The notes under the pieces: generated by a model
Told to the model about the DNA's origin: nothing
Database searches by the model: none
The model's input: only the letters and a program-made list of their open reading frames with translations
In this document: positions 11,310-23,671 of the stretch, in pieces
Position numbering within the stretch: position 1 is the stretch's first letter
Layout of the letters: every line of letters starts with the position of its first letter
Made by a program: the position numbers and the translations under genes
NCBI GenBank assembly: GCA_026713825.1
Contig: JAPONS010000057.1
Span: 1 to 32,336, forward strand
Direction: 5' to 3'
DNA length: 32,336 bases
Source of the DNA: Chloroflexota bacterium
GTDB lineage: Bacteria; Chloroflexota; Dehalococcoidia; Lucifugimonadales; UBA1127

Positions 11310-11975
11310 GTGCGTTTCCGGTCTTCTAAGAAGGGCGAGCACATCTTCTTCCTGCTGGAGCAGAACGCGCTGAACGCCGGCAAGGCGGGGCGGCTGCTCC
11401 GGGGGTTGATGGAGCACACCGAGGGCATGAAAGGGCAGGTCGAGGAGATCGCGGCCCTGGAGCGCTTTGGGGACGAGATTGTCCAGCAGACGGCCGTCGC
11501 GTTGCAGCAGGGGAAGACGGCGCCCATGGACCGCCGCGACATCGCCGCGCTGACGGACGCGCTGGACGGGGTCGTGGACGGGGTTGGGAGCGTGGCGGCG
11601 TCGATGCCGGCGTACGGGCTGGACGCGCCCTCGGAGCGCGCGCGGTCGATGGCGGAGGCCATCGCGCAGTCGTGCGGCGAGCTACAGAAGGGCGTCGGGC
11701 TGCTGAAGGCCGGCCCCGAGAGGCACTCGGAGATACTGTCGCTGACGGCGTCGGTGCGGGCGCGGGCCGCGGCGATGGAGCGGGCCAACGGCGGGCTGCT
11801 TGCGCCGCACTTCGCGGAGGGGCAGGACGCGGAGACCATCCTCAAGTGGCGCGACGTTTACGGCGACCTGCGGCGGGCGCTGGGCGAGACGCGCTCGGCG
11901 GCGGCGGCGCTCGAGGGGGCGGTGATGCCGCGGGGCAGGGGGCGCTTTCGGCGCAGTCTGTCACACCCGGCTTAG
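11310..11975 (+). CDS. DUF47 family PhoU-like protein, 221 aa
   Basis: All-helical protein of the DUF47 (PhoU-divergent) family, whose members usually accompany low-affinity Pit phosphate transporters. The signature is the central LQQGKTAPMDRRDIAALTDALDG-like segment (residues about 65-87), matching the family's TPFDREDI..L...LDD motif. The C-terminal end is basic (RGRGRFRRSL). GTG at 11310 is preceded by GGGAG. It follows phoU after a terminator, so it probably has its own promoter. No Pit gene is in the window, so it may act with the neighbouring PhoU instead. The family call is fairly sure; the partner is inferred. Confidence 0.78.
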   Translation: MRFRSSKKGEHIFFLLEQNALNAGKAGRLLRGLMEHTEGMKGQVEEIAALERFGDEIVQQTAVALQQGKTAPMDRRDIAALTDALDGVVDGVGSVAASMPAYGLDAPSERARSMAEAIAQSCGELQKGVGLLKAGPERHSEILSLTASVRARAAAMERANGGLLAPHFAEGQDAETILKWRDVYGDLRRALGETRSAAAALEGAVMPRGRGRFRRSLSHPA

Positions 11976-12013
11976 CACAGCCCTTGCCGCGCCCCCGCGC
12001 CCCCGCATCACCC

Positions 12014-12042
12014 TTGCTTCATCCGTACAAATGGTCTATTGT
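12014..12042 (+). promoter_or_regulatory. Promoter of the methyltransferase-HNH gene
   Basis: TTGCTT (12014-12019), 17 bases, TATTGT (12037-12042), about 45 bases before the GTG start. It would drive both the methyltransferase fusion and the DUF4238 gene. Confidence 0.5.
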
Positions 12043-12088
12043 GCGATACTGTGCAAGCGGACCTGAATCCACGCCAAGGAGCGACGCC

Positions 12089-13441
12089 GTGACGGCCAAC
12101 TTCACCAACCGCACCCTCTGGACGGGCGACAACCTGGACATCATGCGCGGGCTGAACTCCGAGTCTGTGGACCTGATCTATCTGGACCCGCCCTTCAACT
12201 CCAATCAGGAATACTCCGCACCCATCGGCTCCGAGGCGGCGGGCGCGGCCTTCAAGGACACGTGGACGCTGAACGACGTTGACCTAGCGTGGCACGGGCT
12301 CATTGCGGAGGAGCACCCCGGCCTCTACCGGATCATTGACGCCGCCGGCGCCGCACATGGCAAGGGAATGAAATCCTACCTGATTATGATGGGTGTCAGG
12401 CTGTTGGAGATTCATCGTGTCTTGAAGGTCGCAGGCGCTGTTTACCTCCATTGTGATGACACCGCAAGCCACTACCTTAAAATGCTGATGGATTCTGTGT
12501 TTGGCGATGGAAACTTCAAGAATGAAATCTCTTGGCAGCGTTTCAACTTCCACGCTGATGCAAAGCGCTTTGGCAGAGTCTGTGACCGGATTCTGTTCTA
12601 CACCAAATCCCAAGCGCACAATTTCAATCGACTCCGAGTGCCCTTCTCAGAGCAATACGTGTCAAGCAAGTTCACACACCAAGACCCTAATGGGCGAAGA
12701 TTCAGGCTGGACAACCTAAATCCACCAGCGGGCCGCGGGCCGGTCTATGAATTCCATGGCGTTACCAAAGCCTGGCGATTCACTGAGGAGAAGATGCTAG
12801 CTTTGGAGAGCGAAGGTCGAATTTACACTCAAAGCAGGGTTCCACAATTGAAGCGGTTTTTGGACGAACTGGATGGTCAAGCCGTCCATGACAATTGGCA
12901 CGACATTCCTCCCATCAACTCAAGGGCCAAGGAGCGCACGGGCTACCCAACGCAGAAGCCACTCGCCCTGCTGGAACGCATCATCAAGGCCAGCAGCAAC
13001 GAGGGCGACGTTGTGCTGGACCCCTTCTGCGGCTGCGCCACTGCCCTCATCGCCGCCGAGAAGCTGGAACGACAGTGGGTCGGCATTGACATTTCCCCCG
13101 CTGCCAAGCGGCTGGTCAAGAGCCGGATGGAGCGGGAGCTGGGCCTGTTTGGGATGCAAGCGATCTACCGTGACGACATTCCGCAACGGACCGACATGGG
13201 CAAGCTGCCGTCGCCGCAGACGCACAAGCACACGCTCTACGGGGTGCAAGAGGGGGTCTGCATCGGGTGCAAGATCATGTTCCCGTTCAAGAACATGACG
13301 ATAGACCACATCGTGCCCCAGTCGAAGGGCGGCTCGGACCACATCGAGAACCTGCAACTGCTGTGTGGCGCGTGCAACTCGATGAAGGGGACGAAGTCGC
13401 AGGCGGAGTTTTTGGCGGCGCTGGCGCAGGCGGGGGGGTAA
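12089..13441 (+). CDS. Beta-class DNA methyltransferase fused to an HNH endonuclease, 450 aa
   Basis: Probable adenine-N6 or cytosine-N4 DNA methyltransferase with a nuclease domain. The catalytic DPPF motif (residues 33-36) precedes the AdoMet-binding DPFCGCATA (311-319), the beta-class order; the region between (about 95-275) should hold target recognition. YPTQKP (286-291) is the usual element before motif I. Residues 391-430 form an HNH finger: CIGC, then IDHIVPQSKGGSD, then CGAC. Residues 95-275 are encoded by visibly lower-GC DNA than the two ends. The GTG start at 12089 has AAGGAG seven bases upstream. The DUF4238 gene follows after 14 bases. It could be a self-contained restriction-modification enzyme. 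Confidence 0.85.
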   Translation: MTANFTNRTLWTGDNLDIMRGLNSESVDLIYLDPPFNSNQEYSAPIGSEAAGAAFKDTWTLNDVDLAWHGLIAEEHPGLYRIIDAAGAAHGKGMKSYLIMMGVRLLEIHRVLKVAGAVYLHCDDTASHYLKMLMDSVFGDGNFKNEISWQRFNFHADAKRFGRVCDRILFYTKSQAHNFNRLRVPFSEQYVSSKFTHQDPNGRRFRLDNLNPPAGRGPVYEFHGVTKAWRFTEEKMLALESEGRIYTQSRVPQLKRFLDELDGQAVHDNWHDIPPINSRAKERTGYPTQKPLALLERIIKASSNEGDVVLDPFCGCATALIAAEKLERQWVGIDISPAAKRLVKSRMERELGLFGMQAIYRDDIPQRTDMGKLPSPQTHKHTLYGVQEGVCIGCKIMFPFKNMTIDHIVPQSKGGSDHIENLQLLCGACNSMKGTKSQAEFLAALAQAGG

Positions 13442-15714: not shown

Positions 15715-17970
15715 CTACCCGCTTGCCTCCAGCTTGGCGAGGGAGTGGAGGAGGCGTTTTACGCCTGTGCCGTCGAAGGCGACGGTGACCTCGTAGTCGT
15801 CTTTGGTGGGTTTGCAGTTGACGACGACGCCCTCGCCGAAGGTGGCGTGGGAGACGCGGTCGCCAGGGTCGAAGGGCGGCGGGCCGGTGGGGGTGTCGGC
15901 GCCGTCCGTTCGCCCCCGTATCAAGTACGGGGCAGGCTCTTCGATTTCCCTCAGGGTGAACGGATTGGAGCGGGCGCGGCTGCCGGTGCGGGTGGCGGCC
16001 CTGGTTTCCTGGCGGGCTTCGCGTTCGCCCTCGGGCGAGGCTATGAGCTCGCGGGGGATGTCGGCGAGGAAGCGCGAGGGGATGCCGGGCAGGGAGTTGC
16101 CCATGACGCGGCGGCGGAAGGCGCGGGTGAGGTAGAGGCGCTCTTTGGCTCGCGTCATGCCGACGTAGCAGAGGCGCCGTTCCTCCTCCATCTCTCCGGG
16201 GTCGTCGAATGAGCGGATGTGCGGGAGCATGCCCTCTTCCATGCCGACCATGAACATGGCGGGGAACTCCAAGCCCTTGGCCTGGTGCAGGGTGATGAGG
16301 GTGACGCCGTCGCTGGAGTCCGCGTTGTCGGCGTCAGAGACGAGGGCGACCTGCTCGAGGAAGGCGGCGAGGCCGTCGGGGGGCGGGACGCCGGCGAAGT
16401 CGGCGGCGACGGTGCGGAGCTCACGGATGTTGTCCCAACGGTCCTCGCCCTGCTCGTCGTCGCTGAGGATGTGGTCGCGGTAGCCGGTGGGCTGGAGGAC
16501 GAGGTCGAGGAGCTCGGCGGCCTCGAGCTCGGTGACGGCCTGCTGGAGCTCCTTGAGGACGGCGCCGAGGCGGGAGAGGGAGGCCTTGCCCGCCCGCGGG
16601 ATGGGGGTGTCGACCTCGGGGTCGTCGGCGAGGATGTCGAGGGCGCGGCGCATGGGGATGTTGAGGGTGCGCGACCATCGATTAAGCTCGTCGACGGAGC
16701 GCTGGCCGATGCCTCGGGGCGGGACGTTCAGGATGCGTTCGAGGCTGACGTCGTCGGCGGGGTTGTTGAGGACGCGGAGATAGGCGATGACGTCCTTGAT
16801 CTCCTTGCGCTGGTAGAAGCGGAGGGCGCCGACGAGGCGGTAGGGGATGCCGTGGCGGATGCAGGCCTCCTCCAGCGCGCGGGACTGGGCGTTGACGCGG
16901 TAGGCGACGGCGGCGTCGCCGAATTGGAGCTCGCCTGCGCGGCGGAGGCGGTCGACTTCCTTGATGACCCAGAGGGCCTCGTCGCCCTCGTCGTAGGCCT
17001 CATGGACGAAGACGCGGAGGCCGGCGGGGGCGGTGGGGAGCAGACGCTTCTCGACGCGCTGGCGGTTGCCGCTGATGACCTTCTCGGCGGCGGAGAGGAT
17101 GTTGGCGGAGGAGCGGTAGTTCTCCTCGAGGAGGACGGTCTCGGCGTCGTGGAAGTCGTTTCGGAAGCTGAGGATGTTGCGGATGTCCGCGTGGCGCCAG
17201 GAGTAGATGGACTGGTCGGGGTCGCCGACGACGGCGATGTTGCGCCACCTGCCGGCGAGCTGCTTGGCGATCTCGTACTGGGCGACGTTGGTGTCCTGGA
17301 ACTCGTCGACCATGAGGTGGCGGTAGCGTGTCTGGTAGCGTTCCAGGACTTCAGGGTGGCTGGCGAATAGGTAGTAGGTCATGAGGAGCAGGTCGTCAAA
17401 ATCGACGGCCTGGTTGGCGCGGAGCATGCGCTGGTACTCCTCGTAGGCGCGCAGGGTCACCTCCTCAAAGTAGGAGCCGACGTTGGCGCGGTAGACGGCG
17501 GGGTCCATGAGCTGGGCCTTGGCGCCGGAGATGCCGCTGAGGATGGCGCCGGGGGTGAACTGCTTGGGCTCAATGCCCGCGCTGACCATTGCCTTCTTGA
17601 GGAGGCTGACCTGGTCGTCGCGGTCGTAGATGGTGAAGCCGCGGTCGATGTTGATGGCCTCGCCGGACTCGCGGAGGATGCGGGAGCAGAGGGCGTGGAA
17701 GGTGCCGGCGGTGATCTGCTCGGCGATGGGGCCGCCGAGGAGGCGGGCGAGGCGGTCGCGGAGCTCGCGGGCGGCCTTGTTCGTGAACGTGAGGACGCAG
17801 ATGCCGCGGGGGCCGACGCCGACGGTGTGGACGAGGTAGGCGACGCGATGGACGATGACGCGGGTCTTGCCGCTGCCGGGGCCCGCGACGATGAGCAGCG
17901 GGCCATCGATGTGCTGGACGGCCCGCTGTTGGGCGTCGTTGAGGCCTTGGAGGAGGGAGTCTGTCGTCAT
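15715..17970 (-). CDS. pcrA: UvrD/PcrA-type superfamily 1 DNA helicase, 751 aa
   Basis: 3'-5' ATP-dependent DNA helicase for repair and replication. Walker A AGPGSGKT is at residues 29-36, then TFTNKAA, motif II VDEFQDTN, motif III GDPDQSIYSWRHAD, motif IV EENYRSS, motif V TLHQAKGLEF and motif VI YVGMTRAKERLYL. The C-terminal GDRVSHATFGEGVV segment is the PcrA/UvrD Tudor-like RNA-polymerase-binding domain. Between the helicase core and that domain, residues 670-686 are encoded by a copy of a dispersed repeat. The minus-strand hexamer TATACT lies only eight bases before the ATG, so the mRNA may be nearly leaderless. It converges on hicA. Confidence 0.94.
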   Translation of the reverse strand: MTTDSLLQGLNDAQQRAVQHIDGPLLIVAGPGSGKTRVIVHRVAYLVHTVGVGPRGICVLTFTNKAARELRDRLARLLGGPIAEQITAGTFHALCSRILRESGEAINIDRGFTIYDRDDQVSLLKKAMVSAGIEPKQFTPGAILSGISGAKAQLMDPAVYRANVGSYFEEVTLRAYEEYQRMLRANQAVDFDDLLLMTYYLFASHPEVLERYQTRYRHLMVDEFQDTNVAQYEIAKQLAGRWRNIAVVGDPDQSIYSWRHADIRNILSFRNDFHDAETVLLEENYRSSANILSAAEKVISGNRQRVEKRLLPTAPAGLRVFVHEAYDEGDEALWVIKEVDRLRRAGELQFGDAAVAYRVNAQSRALEEACIRHGIPYRLVGALRFYQRKEIKDVIAYLRVLNNPADDVSLERILNVPPRGIGQRSVDELNRWSRTLNIPMRRALDILADDPEVDTPIPRAGKASLSRLGAVLKELQQAVTELEAAELLDLVLQPTGYRDHILSDDEQGEDRWDNIRELRTVAADFAGVPPPDGLAAFLEQVALVSDADNADSSDGVTLITLHQAKGLEFPAMFMVGMEEGMLPHIRSFDDPGEMEEERRLCYVGMTRAKERLYLTRAFRRRVMGNSLPGIPSRFLADIPRELIASPEGEREARQETRAATRTGSRARSNPFTLREIEEPAPYLIRGRTDGADTPTGPPPFDPGDRVSHATFGEGVVVNCKPTKDDYEVTVAFDGTGVKRLLHSLAKLEASG
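15914..15963. repeat. Dispersed repeat embedded in frame in pcrA
   Basis: CCCCGTATCAAGTACGGGG then CAGGCTCTTC matches 3729-3757 with one mismatch, and its far end, CTCAGGGTGAACGG, matches the family C repeat at 19306-19330. On the minus strand it encodes PFTLREIEEPAPYLIRGR within the helicase linker. Confidence 0.85.
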
Positions 17971-17978
17971 ACGCTAGC

Positions 17979-17984
17979 AGTATA
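17979..17984 (-). promoter_or_regulatory. -10 element of pcrA
   Basis: TATACT on the minus strand, eight bases from the ATG. No clear -35 is seen. The close spacing implies little or no 5' leader. Confidence 0.45.
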
Positions 17985-18050
17985 GCAGCGCGGGCGGCTC
18001 CATCGGCGGGGTGACGGCGCCGGTTCCGGGGGTGTTTGGGGGTGGGCCTC

Positions 18051-18102
18051 CTGGATACCGGCCCCATATCGGAGTACGGGGCCGGTATGCGCGGGTATGA
18101 CG
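18051..18102. repeat. Dispersed repeat, family A with internal insert
   Basis: CTGGATACCGGCCCC, then ATATCGGAGTA, then GGGGCCGGTATG and GGGTATGACG. A family A element whose loop has been replaced by the GTACGGGG unit seen at 3729 and 15914, so it joins the two repeat types. Confidence 0.75.
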
Positions 18103-18142
18103 CCAGGGGCGCTGTGCTATCCTGTTTCAACAAGAGGTGAGG

Positions 18143-19294
18143 ATGAACAACCCTCCGGCCCACGCCATAGCGTCGATATCGTTCGGGTCCACCTATGCGG
18201 ATGTTGCCGCGCTGGTGGGGGCCTTTCTCCTCTTTGTGCTGCTCTCCTACCTTGTGCACTTCATTCTCGACCGGGTGGCGGACAGCCTGAAGCGCAAGCA
18301 GAGGGCGGAGGTGATCGAGCACCTCATTCAGGCGACGTACCGTCCCATCACGCTCTTCTTTCTGGTGCAGGGGATCCTGGCCGTCGCGGTCTTGCTCAGC
18401 CAGATGGAGCGGTGGCACGGCGTCATTGGCCTGGACGCGTGGCTCAACATCATCTTCCGCGGCTGGGCGGTCCTAACGTTGCTGCTGGTGGCGGCGGGCG
18501 GCGCCCGGGCTTTGGGCGTCGTGCTGACCTGGTACGGCGAGAACCTTGCGGACGACGAGGGCGCCATACTCGCGCCGAGCCTCATCAATCCCCTGCGCCG
18601 CTTTGCCACGCTGGGCATCTACATCATCGCGATCCTGCTGGCCCTGGAGTTGGTGGGCATCAGCGTGACGCCGCTGGTGGCGGGTCTCGGCATCGGCGGT
18701 CTGGCTGTCGCGCTGGCGGTGCAGCCGACGCTGTCGAACTTCTTCGCGGGCAGCTACCTCTCTGGCGACCGGGTCATCAGCGCGGGGGACTTCGTCGAGC
18801 TGGAGAACGGATTTCAGGGCTACGTGGTGGACGTGGGATGGCGGAGCACACGGCTGCGGACGCCGTACAACAACCTCGTGGTGGTGCCGAACTCGCGGCT
18901 GGCCGACAGCATGCTGACGAACTATTCGAGCCCGGAGGAGCAGATCGGGGTGCTCGTCATGTGCGGCGTGAGCTACAGCAGCGCGCTGGCAGACGTGGAG
19001 CGGATGGCCAAGGAGGCGGCGCAGAAGGTCGTCGACAACACGGACGGCGCGGACAAGGGGATGGCGCCGTGGTTCGGGTTCGAGACGTTCGGCGACTCCA
19101 ACATCGACTTCTGGGTGTGGGTGCAGGCCAACAGCCGGATCGATTCCTTCATCGTCAAGAGTGAGCTGATCAAGGCGCTGCACGAGCGGTTCGGGGCGGA
19201 GGGGATCTCCATCAACTACCCGATGCGCCACCTGGTGTTCCCGGAGGACGGGCTGCCGGTGACGCATACCGAGGGCGACGGGCCGTCGGCGTAG
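18143..19294 (+). CDS. MscS-family mechanosensitive ion channel, 383 aa
   Basis: Membrane-tension-gated channel that releases solutes on osmotic downshock. Hydrophobic segments near residues 20-42, 68-86, 103-130 and 155-177 precede the pore helix GLGIGGLAVALAVQPTLSNF (181-200), rich in Gly/Ala as in MscS TM3. The beta domain follows (SGDRVISAGDFVELENGFQGYVVDVGWRSTRL; PNSRLADSMLTNY), then the alpha/beta C-terminal domain. The ATG at 18143 has GAGG five bases upstream; GTG at 18137 is also possible. A TATCCT -10-like hexamer lies at 18118-18123. It converges on the VLRF1 gene across a family C repeat. Confidence 0.93.
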   Translation: MNNPPAHAIASISFGSTYADVAALVGAFLLFVLLSYLVHFILDRVADSLKRKQRAEVIEHLIQATYRPITLFFLVQGILAVAVLLSQMERWHGVIGLDAWLNIIFRGWAVLTLLLVAAGGARALGVVLTWYGENLADDEGAILAPSLINPLRRFATLGIYIIAILLALELVGISVTPLVAGLGIGGLAVALAVQPTLSNFFAGSYLSGDRVISAGDFVELENGFQGYVVDVGWRSTRLRTPYNNLVVVPNSRLADSMLTNYSSPEEQIGVLVMCGVSYSSALADVERMAKEAAQKVVDNTDGADKGMAPWFGFETFGDSNIDFWVWVQANSRIDSFIVKSELIKALHERFGAEGISINYPMRHLVFPEDGLPVTHTEGDGPSA

Positions 19295-19305
19295 CCGGGG
19301 CGAGG

Positions 19306-19330
19306 CCCTTCGGCAGGCTCAGGGTGAACG
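19306..19330. repeat. Dispersed repeat, family C
   Basis: CCCTTCGGCAGGCTCAGGG then TGAACG, two mismatches from the copies at 21266-21291 and 27141-27165 (core CAGGCTCAGGGCGAACGG). It occupies the gap between two convergent genes. Confidence 0.8.
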
Positions 19331-19340
19331 TCGGCCGCCG

Positions 19341-20102
19341 TCACACTGGCGGCGCAACCTCGTAGACGACGCTTTCCCAGAGTGTCTTCGGCAGGGCGAC
19401 TAGAGCGTCGTGGCCGGGCTCGCGGACGTCGAGGACGCGCTTGCGGGTGACGGGGCCGAAGCGCTCGGCCCACGGGCACCACTCGCGGAAGCCCGCGAGG
19501 GTGTGGGCCTCGCCGCCGAGGAAGAAGTGCTCGATATCACGCTCGTACGGGGTGAGTCGGGCCTGCAACTCCTCACAGACTTCCTTGTAGAGCTCGTGCA
19601 TCTGGCCCTCTCGGATGCGGCGGAAGCGGTTGGACGACGAGCCGCCCTTCTTGTGGCGCCCCTTGACGAAGCGGCGGTCGGTCTTGGACGCGAGCAGGCG
19701 CTCGCCGCGGTAGACGCCGATGCCGTAGCGGCCGAGGCGCACGAGGCAGGCGGCGATGACGGGCTCGGTGTCCAAGAGGGCGAGCAGGGGCGTTGCGTCG
19801 ATGCCTTCTGTCTGCATCTCGACGGCGAGGGGGAGCGGGGGGAGGACGGCGCGGAGGAGGCGTCCGTCCCAGAAGAGCGCGGCGCCGACGTCGGATGCGG
19901 CGATGGCGGCGGTCACGCGGTCGAGGCCGTCGGCGCCGGCGAGGGTGGGCGAGAGCTCGGCGAGCGGGGGCGGCGCGCTCCAAGGCGCGAGGCAGGCGGT
20001 GCGAGCCGTCGCGCCGGGCCTCGCGAGGAGGGCGTCGAGGTAACGGCGCATGCGGTCCTTCGGCAGGACGCGGCGGGTGACGGCGGCGGTGTGGGTCGTC
20101 AT
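19341..20102 (-). CDS. Vms1/VLRF1-type peptidyl-tRNA hydrolase (release-factor-like), 253 aa
   Basis: Predicted to cut nascent chains from tRNA on stalled large ribosomal subunits, as Vms1/ANKZF1 does in eukaryotes; bacterial relatives (acVLRF1) are known. The diagnostic segment is residues 143-167: TDRRFVKGRHKKGG then SSSNRFRRIREGQ, matching the VLRF1 G-R-H-x-x-G-G-x-S-x-x-R-F loop that resembles the eRF1 GGQ loop. The alpha/beta core before it (AALFWDGRLLRAVLPPL) fits the same fold. The start at 20102 is chosen because the open frame beyond it is antisense to the next gene. CTGACG-N18-TACAGT ends six bases from this ATG, suggesting a leaderless mRNA. The usual ankyrin and zinc-finger parts are absent. 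Confidence 0.78.
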   Translation of the reverse strand: MTTHTAAVTRRVLPKDRMRRYLDALLARPGATARTACLAPWSAPPPLAELSPTLAGADGLDRVTAAIAASDVGAALFWDGRLLRAVLPPLPLAVEMQTEGIDATPLLALLDTEPVIAACLVRLGRYGIGVYRGERLLASKTDRRFVKGRHKKGGSSSNRFRRIREGQMHELYKEVCEELQARLTPYERDIEHFFLGGEAHTLAGFREWCPWAERFGPVTRKRVLDVREPGHDALVALPKTLWESVVYEVAPPV

Positions 20103-20108
20103 GCTCCA

Positions 20109-20138
20109 ACTGTACCCCACACCTTGACGCAGCGTCAG
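20109..20138 (-). promoter_or_regulatory. Promoter of the VLRF1 gene
   Basis: On the minus strand, CTGACG (20138-20133), 18 bases, TACAGT (20114-20109), then six bases and the ATG. Transcription would begin at or next to the start codon. Confidence 0.5.
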
Positions 20139-21291: not shown

Positions 21292-21301
21292 AGGGATGAC
21301 A

Positions 21302-22390
21302 TTGGCGACTGTCGCGGTTCCAGCCAGCATCGAGGATGTGACGCCGGAGTGGCTGACGGCTGCGCTGCGCGAGAGTGGGCTCGACGTGCGGGTGGCCTCG
21401 GTGACGGCGCAGAGCATCGGCGAGGGTTTCGGCGTCAACGGGATGACCTCTCGGCTGCGGGTCGAGTACGCAGCGGGCGACGGGCCGCCGTCGTTTGTGA
21501 TGAAGCTGCCAGCGACGATGCCGGAGAGCAAGGCCATCGGGCTGCGGCTGGGGTTCTACGAGAACGAGATCCGCTTCTACGACGAGCTTGCGGGCGGCGT
21601 GTCCGTCAACCTGCCTCGACATTACTACACCGGCATGGACAAGGAGCGGCAGGACTACGCGCTGCTGCTGGAGGACATGGCGCCCGCGACGCCCGGCGAC
21701 GACATCGCGAGTTGCTCGCTGGAGGATGCGCAGCTCATCGTGGACGAGCTTCCGAAGCTGCATGTGCCGTGGTGGAACAGCGAACTGCTGCCGACGCTCG
21801 AGTGGCTGCCTGTCGGCGAGCCGAACATCGAGGCGGCGAACCAGCGGTTCCAGGAGACCCTATTTCCGGCGACGATTGAGCACTACGGCAGTACGCTGTC
21901 GCCGACTGCATACCGGGTGGCGGAGAAGTACTCTCGGGGGCTGGTGCACATCGTGAAGCAGATGACAGCGGCCCCGTACACGCTGACGCACAGCGACTAC
22001 CGGCTGGTGAATATGCTGCTGGGCGGGACGGGGGAAAGCCGACAGATCACGGTGCTCGACTGGCAGCGTGTCGCGCTGGGGAAGGGGCCCATCGACGTGG
22101 CCTTCTTCACGGTGCTGAGTTTGCCGCCGGAGACGCGGCGGGCTTGGCAGTGGGGGCTGGTGGAGCGGTACCACGAGGGGCTGCTGGAGCGGGGAATCAA
22201 GGGCTACAGCCTGGAGGAGTGCCAGCGCGACTATCGGCTGTGCGCCTTCGCGCCGTCGCGTATCGCGCTGGCGCACGGGTCACGGCCGCGATCGCAGCTC
22301 GACGGGGACGCGGGCGTGTTGCTGCAGGCGACGCTGATGCAGCGAGCGGCGGCCGCGATGGAAGATTTGGACATGGAGGAGTTTTTGTAG
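21302..22390 (+). CDS. APH/EcKinase-like phosphotransferase, first tandem copy, 362 aa
   Basis: Protein-kinase-fold small-molecule kinase. Numbering from the ATG at 21296: nucleotide-site lysine K70 (FVMK), catalytic loop HSDYRLVN with H232, D234 and N239, and metal-binding D255 (VLDWQR). SLEDAQLIVDELPKLHVPWW resembles the ecdysteroid-kinase-like / DUF1679 branch of aminoglycoside phosphotransferase relatives. GGAGGG directly abuts ATG 21296, too close for use, so the TTG at 21302, six bases on, is the more likely start. The protein ends MEDLDMEEFL, almost the same as the next gene. The substrate is unknown; an antibiotic is not implied. Confidence 0.85.
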   Translation: MATVAVPASIEDVTPEWLTAALRESGLDVRVASVTAQSIGEGFGVNGMTSRLRVEYAAGDGPPSFVMKLPATMPESKAIGLRLGFYENEIRFYDELAGGVSVNLPRHYYTGMDKERQDYALLLEDMAPATPGDDIASCSLEDAQLIVDELPKLHVPWWNSELLPTLEWLPVGEPNIEAANQRFQETLFPATIEHYGSTLSPTAYRVAEKYSRGLVHIVKQMTAAPYTLTHSDYRLVNMLLGGTGESRQITVLDWQRVALGKGPIDVAFFTVLSLPPETRRAWQWGLVERYHEGLLERGIKGYSLEECQRDYRLCAFAPSRIALAHGSRPRSQLDGDAGVLLQATLMQRAAAAMEDLDMEEFL

Positions 22391-22391
22391 A

Positions 22392-22410
22392 GGCAACCCT
22401 CGTGGTTGCC
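22392..22410 (+). terminator. Hairpin after the first phosphotransferase
   Basis: GGCAACC (22392-22398) and GGTTGCC (22404-22410) pair perfectly, starting one base after the stop. There is no T-run, so termination is uncertain. Confidence 0.4.
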
Positions 22411-22466
22411 TTGGGCGCCCACAAGGGGCGCTCCTATGCCGGCGCCCCTCGGGGTTCCCCTGCCTT

Positions 22467-22549
22467 CCATACCGGGGTGCGGGGCAGGCTTCGAGGGAAC
22501 GACGGAGGTGTCGCGTTTGTCGGGGTTCCTGCCTGCGCAGGAACGACGG
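22467..22549. repeat. Two dispersed repeats between the phosphotransferase genes
   Basis: The first (22467-22505) starts CCATACCGGGG, contains GGGGCAGGCTTCGAGGG and ends GAACGACGG. The second (22525-22549) is a GTTCCTGC...GCAGGAAC palindrome ending CGACGG. Both are variants of the elements seen at 146-196 and 3708-3803. Confidence 0.65.
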
Positions 22550-22576
22550 TTGGGAGGAGAATCTGGAGGCAGGCCA

Positions 22577-23671
22577 ATGGCAGACGTGGAGGTTCCATCC
22601 GGACTTACAGACATAACAGCTGAGTGGATGACGGAGGTGCTGCGCGGGCGCGGGCTTGACGTGGAGGTCGCGTCCGTGACGCCGGAGGTGGGCGCGGAAG
22701 GCTCGGGGGTGAACGGCATCACCTGCCGGTTGTTCCTGGAGTACGCGCGTGGCGGCGAGGGCGCGCCGGCGTCGCTCGTGGTGAAGCTGCCGTCGACGTC
22801 GGAGACCATCAAGGGGGTCGCGATCCGGCAGCGGTTCTACCACAACGAAATCTACTTCTACGACGACATCGCGGACAGGATCACGGTCAACATCCCGCGG
22901 CACTACTACGGAGGCATCGACGACGAGCGGCAGAACTTCGCGCTGCTGATGCAGGACATGACGCCTGCCGTCGTGGGGGACGACATCGGGAGCTGCACCA
23001 AGGAAGAGGCGGTGCTGGCGGTGCGGGAGATCCCCAAGCTGCACGCGCCGTGGTGGGAGCACCCGGACCTCGACAGCTTCGCGTGGCTGCCCGTCGGGGA
23101 GCCGAACCTGGCCGTGGCCGACGCCCGGTTCGCGAACGAGGTGCTGCCGGGGGTGATGCGCAACTACGGCGACGAGCTTTCGCCGAAGGTGCGGGGTATC
23201 ATCGAGCGGTACTGCACCAACTTCACCGAGACCGTTCTGAGCATGTGCACGAGCCCCAGGACGCTGACGCACAGCGACTACCGGCTGACGAACATGCTGT
23301 TCGGCGGGCCGCCGGACGCGCGGGAGATCACGGTGGTCGACTGGCAGCGGGTGGCGATTGCTCGCGGGCCGGTGGACGTGGCGTTCTTCGCGGTGCTGAG
23401 CCTGACGCCGGAGCTGCGGCGGGCGTGGGAGCGGGAGCTGGTGGAGCAGTACCACGACGCGCTGATGGCGGAGGGCGTGAAAGGGTACTCGCTGGAGGCG
23501 TGCTGGCGGGACTACCGGCTGTGCGCCATCGGGCCGTCGCGGATCACGCTGTCGTTCTCGGCGCGGCCGCGGGAGGACATGGGCGGCGCGCACCTGCTCG
23601 CGCTGCAGCAGACGCTGATCTCGCGCGTGTCGGCGGCGATGGAGGACCTGGACATGGAGGAGTTTGTGTAG
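22577..23671 (+). CDS. APH/EcKinase-like phosphotransferase, second tandem copy, 364 aa
   Basis: Paralog of the preceding gene, aligning end to end without gaps at the landmark residues: K70 (LVVK), H232/D234/N239 in HSDYRLTN, D255 (VVDWQR), ending MEDLDMEEFV. Shared blocks include RHYY, LPVGEPN, YTLTHSDYRL-like and GPxDVAFF. Divergence is substantial elsewhere, so this is an old duplication that has probably specialised. The ATG at 22577 has GGAGG seven bases upstream. An open frame back to 22406 runs through repeats and is not coding. The substrate is unknown. Confidence 0.88.
   Translation: MADVEVPSGLTDITAEWMTEVLRGRGLDVEVASVTPEVGAEGSGVNGITCRLFLEYARGGEGAPASLVVKLPSTSETIKGVAIRQRFYHNEIYFYDDIADRITVNIPRHYYGGIDDERQNFALLMQDMTPAVVGDDIGSCTKEEAVLAVREIPKLHAPWWEHPDLDSFAWLPVGEPNLAVADARFANEVLPGVMRNYGDELSPKVRGIIERYCTNFTETVLSMCTSPRTLTHSDYRLTNMLFGGPPDAREITVVDWQRVAIARGPVDVAFFAVLSLTPELRRAWERELVEQYHDALMAEGVKGYSLEACWRDYRLCAIGPSRITLSFSARPREDMGGAHLLALQQTLISRVSAAMEDLDMEEFV

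What the first reader, a model, noticed from the sequence alone, without database searches (positions are those of the whole stretch)
19341..20138. VLRF1-type peptidyl-tRNA hydrolase: ribosome rescue outside eukaryotes
The GRHKKGGSSSNRF loop (residues 148-160) is the Vms1/ANKZF1-like release motif. Bacterial versions are little studied. Here it stands alone, without ankyrin or zinc-finger parts, and may release nascent chains in ribosome-associated quality control. A fourth-position Ser replaces the catalytic Gln discussed for the eukaryotic enzymes, which bears on mechanism.
Basis: partly seen in the sequence, partly recalled or inferred. Interest (0 to 1): 0.55.

Follow-up and report, generated by a model that had tools for sequence, protein, structure and literature searches.

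The report
Bacterial Vms1-like release factor lacking glutamine
A small bacterial protein shaped like the enzymes that cut unfinished proteins off stalled ribosomes has lost the glutamine thought to do the cutting, and many of its relatives sit next to the gene for the machine that splits stalled ribosomes, pointing to a rescue route that works without the usual bacterial partner.

Summary
The gene at 19341-20102 (-) encodes a 253-aa acVLRF-1-type protein (PF18859, 86 bits; confident eRF1-middle-domain fold). Its loop reads GGSSS where the published family motif is GGxSQ, so no Gln stands at either the eRF1 or the VLRF position. This is a lineage trait: in 82 genes from 294 genomes of the same class, 33 lack Gln at both positions, although GG-x-S-x-x-R holds in all 82; the quick tree needs 19 Gln/no-Gln changes, at least 8 on well-supported branches. 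The genome has tmRNA, SmpB, RF1/RF2 and MutS2 but no RqcH; RqcH is nearly absent from the class (1 of 294). In 37 of 82 class genes acVLRF-1 lies downstream of mutS2 on the same strand, and 17 of those 37 lack Gln. MutS2 is the collision-triggered ribosome splitter. Best reading: acVLRF-1 is the RqcH-independent step that frees nascent chains from MutS2-split 50S subunits, with a loop whose Gln is dispensable. Release activity is untested, and the window copy itself is not beside mutS2.

The parts
19341..20102 (-). acVLRF-1-type gene, 253 aa, ATG start, TGA stop
   Evidence: Translation; PF18859 86.4 bits, cut-off 27.1; relatives
19368..19757 (-). eRF1-domain-2-like (RNase H fold) domain
   Evidence: PF18859 match in the whole genome; model pLDDT 88.8 aligned to aRF1 Z 14.6, rmsd 2.7 over 129 residues
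19623..19661 (-). GRHKKGGSSSNRF loop; GG kept, Ser at the eRF1, Vms1 and acVLRF-1 glutamine positions
   Evidence: published motif GGxSQ in PMC6514570
19788..20102 (-). N-terminal extension of about 105 residues, no Pfam domain
   Evidence: residues 1-103 modelled alone at pLDDT 72.5, no PDB match at E <= 0.001

Best explanation
The gene encodes a bacterial Vms1-like release factor of the acVLRF-1 type. It most likely enters the peptidyl-transferase centre of 50S subunits that still carry peptidyl-tRNA after MutS2 has split a stalled or collided ribosome, and detaches the nascent chain. Shown here: family, fold, intact GG-x-S-x-x-R loop without Gln, no RqcH, MutS2 present in the genome, and a mutS2/acVLRF-1 gene pair in many relatives. 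Inferred: binding to the 50S, release activity, and that release runs without the Gln side chain, using the GG-Ser backbone and the loop Arg/His.
For: Family and fold. In 37 of 82 class genes acVLRF-1 lies downstream of mutS2 on the same strand (in three of them, G109, G186 and G208, about 600 nt more lies between); 15 families in the coordinate count; identity among the 37 runs from 34% to 89%, median 53%, and no other neighbour family recurs in more than 6 loci. MutS2 splits collided ribosomes and leaves 50S-peptidyl-tRNA (PMC10897456, passages). RqcH is over the cut-off in 1 of 294 class genomes although 204 of 294 have MutS2. Where RqcH is present, the Ala tail is said to expose the ester bond to Pth (PMC11633108, passage); without RqcH a factor acting inside the peptidyl-transferase centre would be needed (inference). 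Loop: GG, Ser4 and Arg7 in 82 of 82, His-3 in 79, Arg/Lys-4 in 76; by my count the window's Arg149 stands where Vms1 has R288 (four residues before the first Gly). [quoted passage not shown] In RF2 the Gln backbone amide is held to catalyse hydrolysis (PMC6742477, passage). Gln-less genes keep the mutS2 pairing: 17 of the 37.
Against: No activity is shown for any acVLRF-1 in what I read. Vms1 Q295L is strongly impaired, so loss of Gln may mean loss of catalysis. The window copy and its nearest relatives (L002-L005) are not beside mutS2; their neighbours include PcrA and MscS. 11 of 80 acVLRF-1 genomes show no MutS2 (several are incomplete). The pairing needs only 3 changes on the tree, so it is few origins kept for long, not many independent ones. 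Actinomycetota, the other acVLRF-1 phylum, have no MutS2 (0 of 3,213 in PMC11633108, table passage), so the factor cannot depend on MutS2 everywhere.
Confidence: 0.5

Rival explanations
1. The Gln-less protein is catalytically dead and acts as a plug: it occupies the 50S A site or peptidyl-transferase centre to protect or hold split or idle subunits, in the manner of the hibernation factor Balon.
For: Gln is absent in 33 of 82 class genes. Balon, an aeRF1 relative, lacks the GGQ motif and keeps the catalytic centre inert (PMC10901736, passages) and is a structural match here (Z about 11). Burroughs and Aravind read Gln-less baeRF-1 families as non-catalytic (PMC6514570, passages).
Against: Those families have poorly conserved loops (PMC6514570), whereas here GG, Ser4 and Arg7 are invariant in 82 of 82. 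Gln-bearing and Gln-less copies alternate within the mutS2-paired rows (8 changes), which suits one shared function rather than a switch to a new one. The protein has no pelota/EF-Tu-binding C-terminal domain.
Confidence: 0.25
2. [quoted passage not shown]
For: Vms1/ANKZF1 is described as a tRNA endonuclease that cleaves the CCA 3' end (PMC11317155, passage). His-3 is kept in 79 and Arg/Lys-4 in 76 of 82 class genes.
Against: The canonical actinobacterial copies read here have RT or RS in place of RH. Archaeal aRF1 carries the same His, so it may be structural. In Vms1, H279A and H283A were like wild type (PMC5989216, passage).
Confidence: 0.12
3. It acts on something other than split ribosomes, for instance 70S termination or free tRNA, and the mutS2 neighbourhood is inherited gene order without meaning.
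For: The gene pair traces to few events on the tree (3 changes); the window copy is not paired; Actinomycetota have acVLRF-1 without MutS2 (PMC11633108, table passage).
Against: No other neighbour of acVLRF-1 is kept over the same depth (at most 6 loci), while the mutS2 pairing survives down to 34% identity.
Confidence: 0.13

Closest known systems
acVLRF-1 family (Burroughs and Aravind 2019; PF18859, NCBIfam NF041024)
   Same: Pfam match far over the cut-off, fold, lone domain with a short N-terminal extension, Chloroflexota host
   Different: GGSSS instead of GGxSQ; NF041024 score 91.5, below its cut-off of 125
Vms1/ANKZF1 (eukaryotic RQC release factor)
   Same: Fold (6r84 Z 10.2, 179 residues aligned, rmsd 4.7); GG and the Arg four residues before it
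   Different: No zinc finger, ankyrin or VIM parts; no Gln; different pathway partners
aRF1/eRF1 middle domain
   Same: Best fold match (8hku Z 14.6); archaeal loop GKHKMGGQSQRR against GRHKKGGSSSNR
   Different: GGQ to GGS; no stop-codon or C-terminal domain detected by Pfam
MutS2-RqcH-Pth pathway of Bacillus
   Same: MutS2 splitter present
   Different: RqcH absent; acVLRF-1 would take the release step directly on the 50S
Balon hibernation factor
   Same: aeRF1-type fold without a GGQ motif
   Different: [quoted passage not shown] here GG-x-S-x-x-R is invariant

Membership tests
acVLRF-1 | PF18859 match over the curated cut-off | tested here: met
   86.4 bits, cut-off 27.1
acVLRF-1 | NCBIfam NF041024 over its cut-off | tested here: not met
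   91.5 bits, cut-off 125
acVLRF-1 | eRF1-domain-2-like RNase H fold | tested here: met
   Model pLDDT 88.8; aRF1 Z 14.6, rmsd 2.7 over 129 residues
acVLRF-1 | Stop-codon-binding domain lost, short N-terminal extension instead | tested here: inconclusive
   No Pfam domain outside the catalytic one and no PDB match for the N-terminus alone, but VIA alignments of the whole model to eRF1 and Vms1 start at residues 9-14
acVLRF-1 | GGxSQ catalytic motif | tested here: not met
   GGSSS; hence filed as a variant
acVLRF-1 | Peptidyl-tRNA hydrolysis | not testable with these tools
   Needs a biochemical assay
Vms1/ANKZF1 (eVLRF-1) | Zinc finger, ankyrin repeats, VIM | tested here: not met
   No such Pfam domain in the protein
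Vms1/ANKZF1 (eVLRF-1) | GxxQ glutamine | tested here: not met
   Ser at positions 3, 4 and 5
Vms1/ANKZF1 (eVLRF-1) | Arg four residues before the first Gly (R288 in Vms1), and GG | tested here: met
   R149, G153, G154; Vms1 data from PMC5989216
Bacterial RQC (RqcH type) | RqcH in the genome | tested here: not met
   0 matches in G000; 1 of 294 class genomes over the cut-off
Bacterial RQC (RqcH type) | MutS2 in the genome | tested here: met
   G000 E = 4.4e-215; place not listed, not in the window
Balon | No GGQ-type loop, and a C-terminal EF-Tu-binding domain | tested here: not met
   GG loop kept; no C-terminal domain detected

The most novel reading that the evidence does not exclude
A second branch of bacterial ribosome-associated quality control: MutS2 splits the ribosome and a dedicated Vms1-like factor, not RqcH plus Pth, frees the chain; and in this lineage the release loop works with no glutamine at all, so the residue held to be the universal catalyst of peptide release is dispensable in nature.
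Probability: 0.27. Interest if true: 0.82.

Novelty: new variant of a known kind. Interest (0 to 1): 0.6.

Why it matters
[quoted passage not shown] A conserved mutS2/acVLRF-1 gene pair in a lineage without RqcH names a candidate that can be tested directly. The recurrent natural loss of the Gln in an otherwise invariant loop also gives a ready panel of proteins with which to ask whether that side chain is needed for peptide release.

Tried and rejected
RqcH partnership: rejected for this genome and class; the weak NFACT_N hits in the class, around profile positions 165-255 in mostly 270-300 aa frames, look like Fpg/Nei-type glycosylases (my reading, not tested).

ArfB: only two RF-1-domain genes in the genome, both in frames of 377-379 aa and so read as RF1 and RF2, no third short one. 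ArfA and Pth were not tested.

N-terminal extension as a known fold: modelled alone at pLDDT 72.5, 32 weak matches, none with E <= 0.001; undecided.

Promoter: a TACAGT box just before the ATG in the window, L002, L004 and L005 looked like a -10 element, but the promoter scan found none; not used.

Operon in the window: neighbours PcrA, MscS and a D-2-hydroxyacid dehydrogenase are partly kept in near relatives but carry no ribosome link.

Chance or pseudogene: rejected by dN/dS 0.12-0.15 and conservation.

Rows dropped before counts: of the matches I read 91 (G000 plus 30 loci plus 60 fetched); 82 scored 190 bits or more with my profile and 9 scored 34-92 bits and were set aside as longer baeRF-10-like proteins. 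matches below 46.5 bits and the contig-edge fragment in G275 were not read for the loop; G275 is counted only (80 genomes; 34 pairs). The loop pattern used demanded GG.[SA]..R[FWYM]; none of the 82 failed it, so the invariance stands. Relatives were chosen partly by the loop pattern FVKGRHKK and were left out of the Gln counts.

Full report
What is there. The minus-strand gene 19341-20102 encodes 253 aa. Pfam gives acVLRF1 at 86.4 bits against a cut-off of 27.1, baeRF_family10 at 40.3 and eRF1_2 at 35.6 over the same region, and no other domain. NCBIfam's acVLRF1 model is reached only below its cut-off (91.5 of 125). By sequence the nearest solved structures are archaeal and eukaryotic release factors. 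A model from 13 sequences has mean pLDDT 88.8, with the loop region at 61-67; it aligns with archaeal aRF1 at Z 14.6, rmsd 2.7 over 129 residues, and with yeast Vms1 at Z 10.2, rmsd 4.7 over 179 residues. The N-terminal 103 residues modelled alone match nothing at E <= 0.001.

The missing glutamine. Burroughs and Aravind (PMC6514570, passages read) state that aVLRF-1 and acVLRF-1 carry GGxSQ and eukaryotic forms GxuQ. The window has GGSSS. 33 of 82 have Gln at neither the eRF1 position (3) nor the VLRF position (5); 32 have position 5 only, 12 both, 5 position 3 only. Yet GG, Ser4 and Arg7 are the same in 82 of 82, Phe8 in 77, Arg10 in 80, His-3 in 79 and Arg/Lys-4 in 76. So the residue named as catalytic is among the variable positions of an otherwise rigid loop. 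Five of five canonical actinobacterial copies read (L116-L120) keep the Gln, and the sixth strong match in that sample (L121) does not. A quick tree of 106 rows, with positions 3 and 5 masked, needs 19 changes between Gln-less and other states, of which starred branches force at least 8 (SH-aLRT only, 29 of 103 inner branches starred, long-branch warnings given).

Rescue systems of the genome. tmRNA, SmpB, two RF-1-domain genes read as RF1 and RF2 and nothing like ArfB, MutS2, a single PF18859 gene, no RqcH. RqcH is over the cut-off in 1 of 294 class genomes (G284, 5% contamination), in 115 of 251 genomes of the phylum and in 0 of 246 of the phylum of locus L009, titled Actinobacteria. A published survey agrees: rqcH in 26 of 41 Chloroflexota and 0 of 3,213 Actinobacteriota (PMC11633108, table passage). 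In the phylum sample the 12 genomes with a strong acVLRF-1 match (66 bits or more) have no RqcH, 0 of 12; shared ancestry makes this weaker than 12 independent cases.

The mutS2 link. Clustering of flanking ORFs found one recurrent neighbour, in 35 loci, which is MutS2 (MutS_V plus Smr). It lies upstream on the same strand in 34 of these 35 and downstream in L007. From coordinates, 34 of 48 acVLRF-1 genes whose MutS2 place was listed follow mutS2 on the same strand, in 15 families. The union of both methods is 37 of 82 class genes; in three (G109, G186, G208) about 600 nt more lies between. 17 of the 37 lack Gln and 20 have position 5. On the tree the pairing needs 3 changes, while Gln state changes 8 times among paired rows. 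Identity among the 37 falls to 34% (median 53%), and no other neighbour family recurs in more than 6 loci. By genome, 69 of 80 with acVLRF-1 have MutS2 against 135 of 214 without (Fisher p = 1e-4, not corrected for kinship). The window copy is not paired: MutS2 is elsewhere in the genome, and near relatives share PcrA and MscS as neighbours instead.

Mechanism. MutS2 splits collided ribosomes and leaves peptidyl-tRNA on the 50S, which RqcH then tails in Bacillus (PMC10897456, passages). The Ala tail is said to expose the bond to Pth (PMC11633108, passage), and Pth is reported to release the tailed chains (PMC11317155, passage). [quoted passage not shown] Without RqcH the bond stays inside the peptidyl-transferase centre, where an eRF1-like loop can reach (inference). 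The Gln may be dispensable: for RF2 the backbone amide is held to catalyse hydrolysis (PMC6742477, passage) and the side chain is said to have a packing role (PMC5799190, passage), while in Vms1 R288A and the GG double mutant had no activity and Q295L was strongly impaired (PMC5989216, passages). GG, and by my count the equivalent Arg (R149), are kept here. Binding, release and chemistry remain untested, and a non-catalytic plug is the main rival.

Print. Searches for VLRF1, VLRF-1/acVLRF/baeRF-1, MutS2 with Vms1 and operon terms and MutS2 with Dehalococcoid and VLRF listed no paper, by title and abstract, that joins MutS2 with VLRF-1 in the held open-access library; PMC6514570 has no occurrence of MutS2. 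Subscription journals are mostly not held.

Noticed in passing
L094, L095, L099, L101, L102, L103, L104, L106: A separate, well-supported paralogue clade with loops such as HRKGGRSE; 6 of 8 rows lack Gln; two genomes (G019, G210) carry it besides a Gln-bearing copy that follows mutS2.
   Followed up: partly
window 11672-13438 (+): One ORF with an N6_N4 DNA methylase domain followed by an HNH endonuclease domain; the next ORF is DUF4238.
   Followed up: no
window 21296-22390 and 22406-23671 (+): Two neighbouring ecdysteroid-kinase-like (EcKL/APH-type) genes, a tandem pair.
   Followed up: no
window 15715-20102 with L002-L005 and L083: The PcrA and MscS side of acVLRF-1 is kept in the near relatives.
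   Followed up: partly
window 20109-20114 (-): TACAGT box just upstream of the ATG, also before acVLRF-1 in L002, L004 and L005; perhaps a leaderless promoter; the scan did not support it.
   Followed up: partly
L009-L013: Records titled Actinobacteria MAGs carry short Gln-less relatives (GGSSA, GGSSS), unlike canonical actinobacterial GGWSQ; the search that found them was loop-biased.
   Followed up: partly
L044 (G284): The only class genome with an NFACT_N match over the cut-off; 76% complete, 5% contaminated, so possibly foreign.
   Followed up: no
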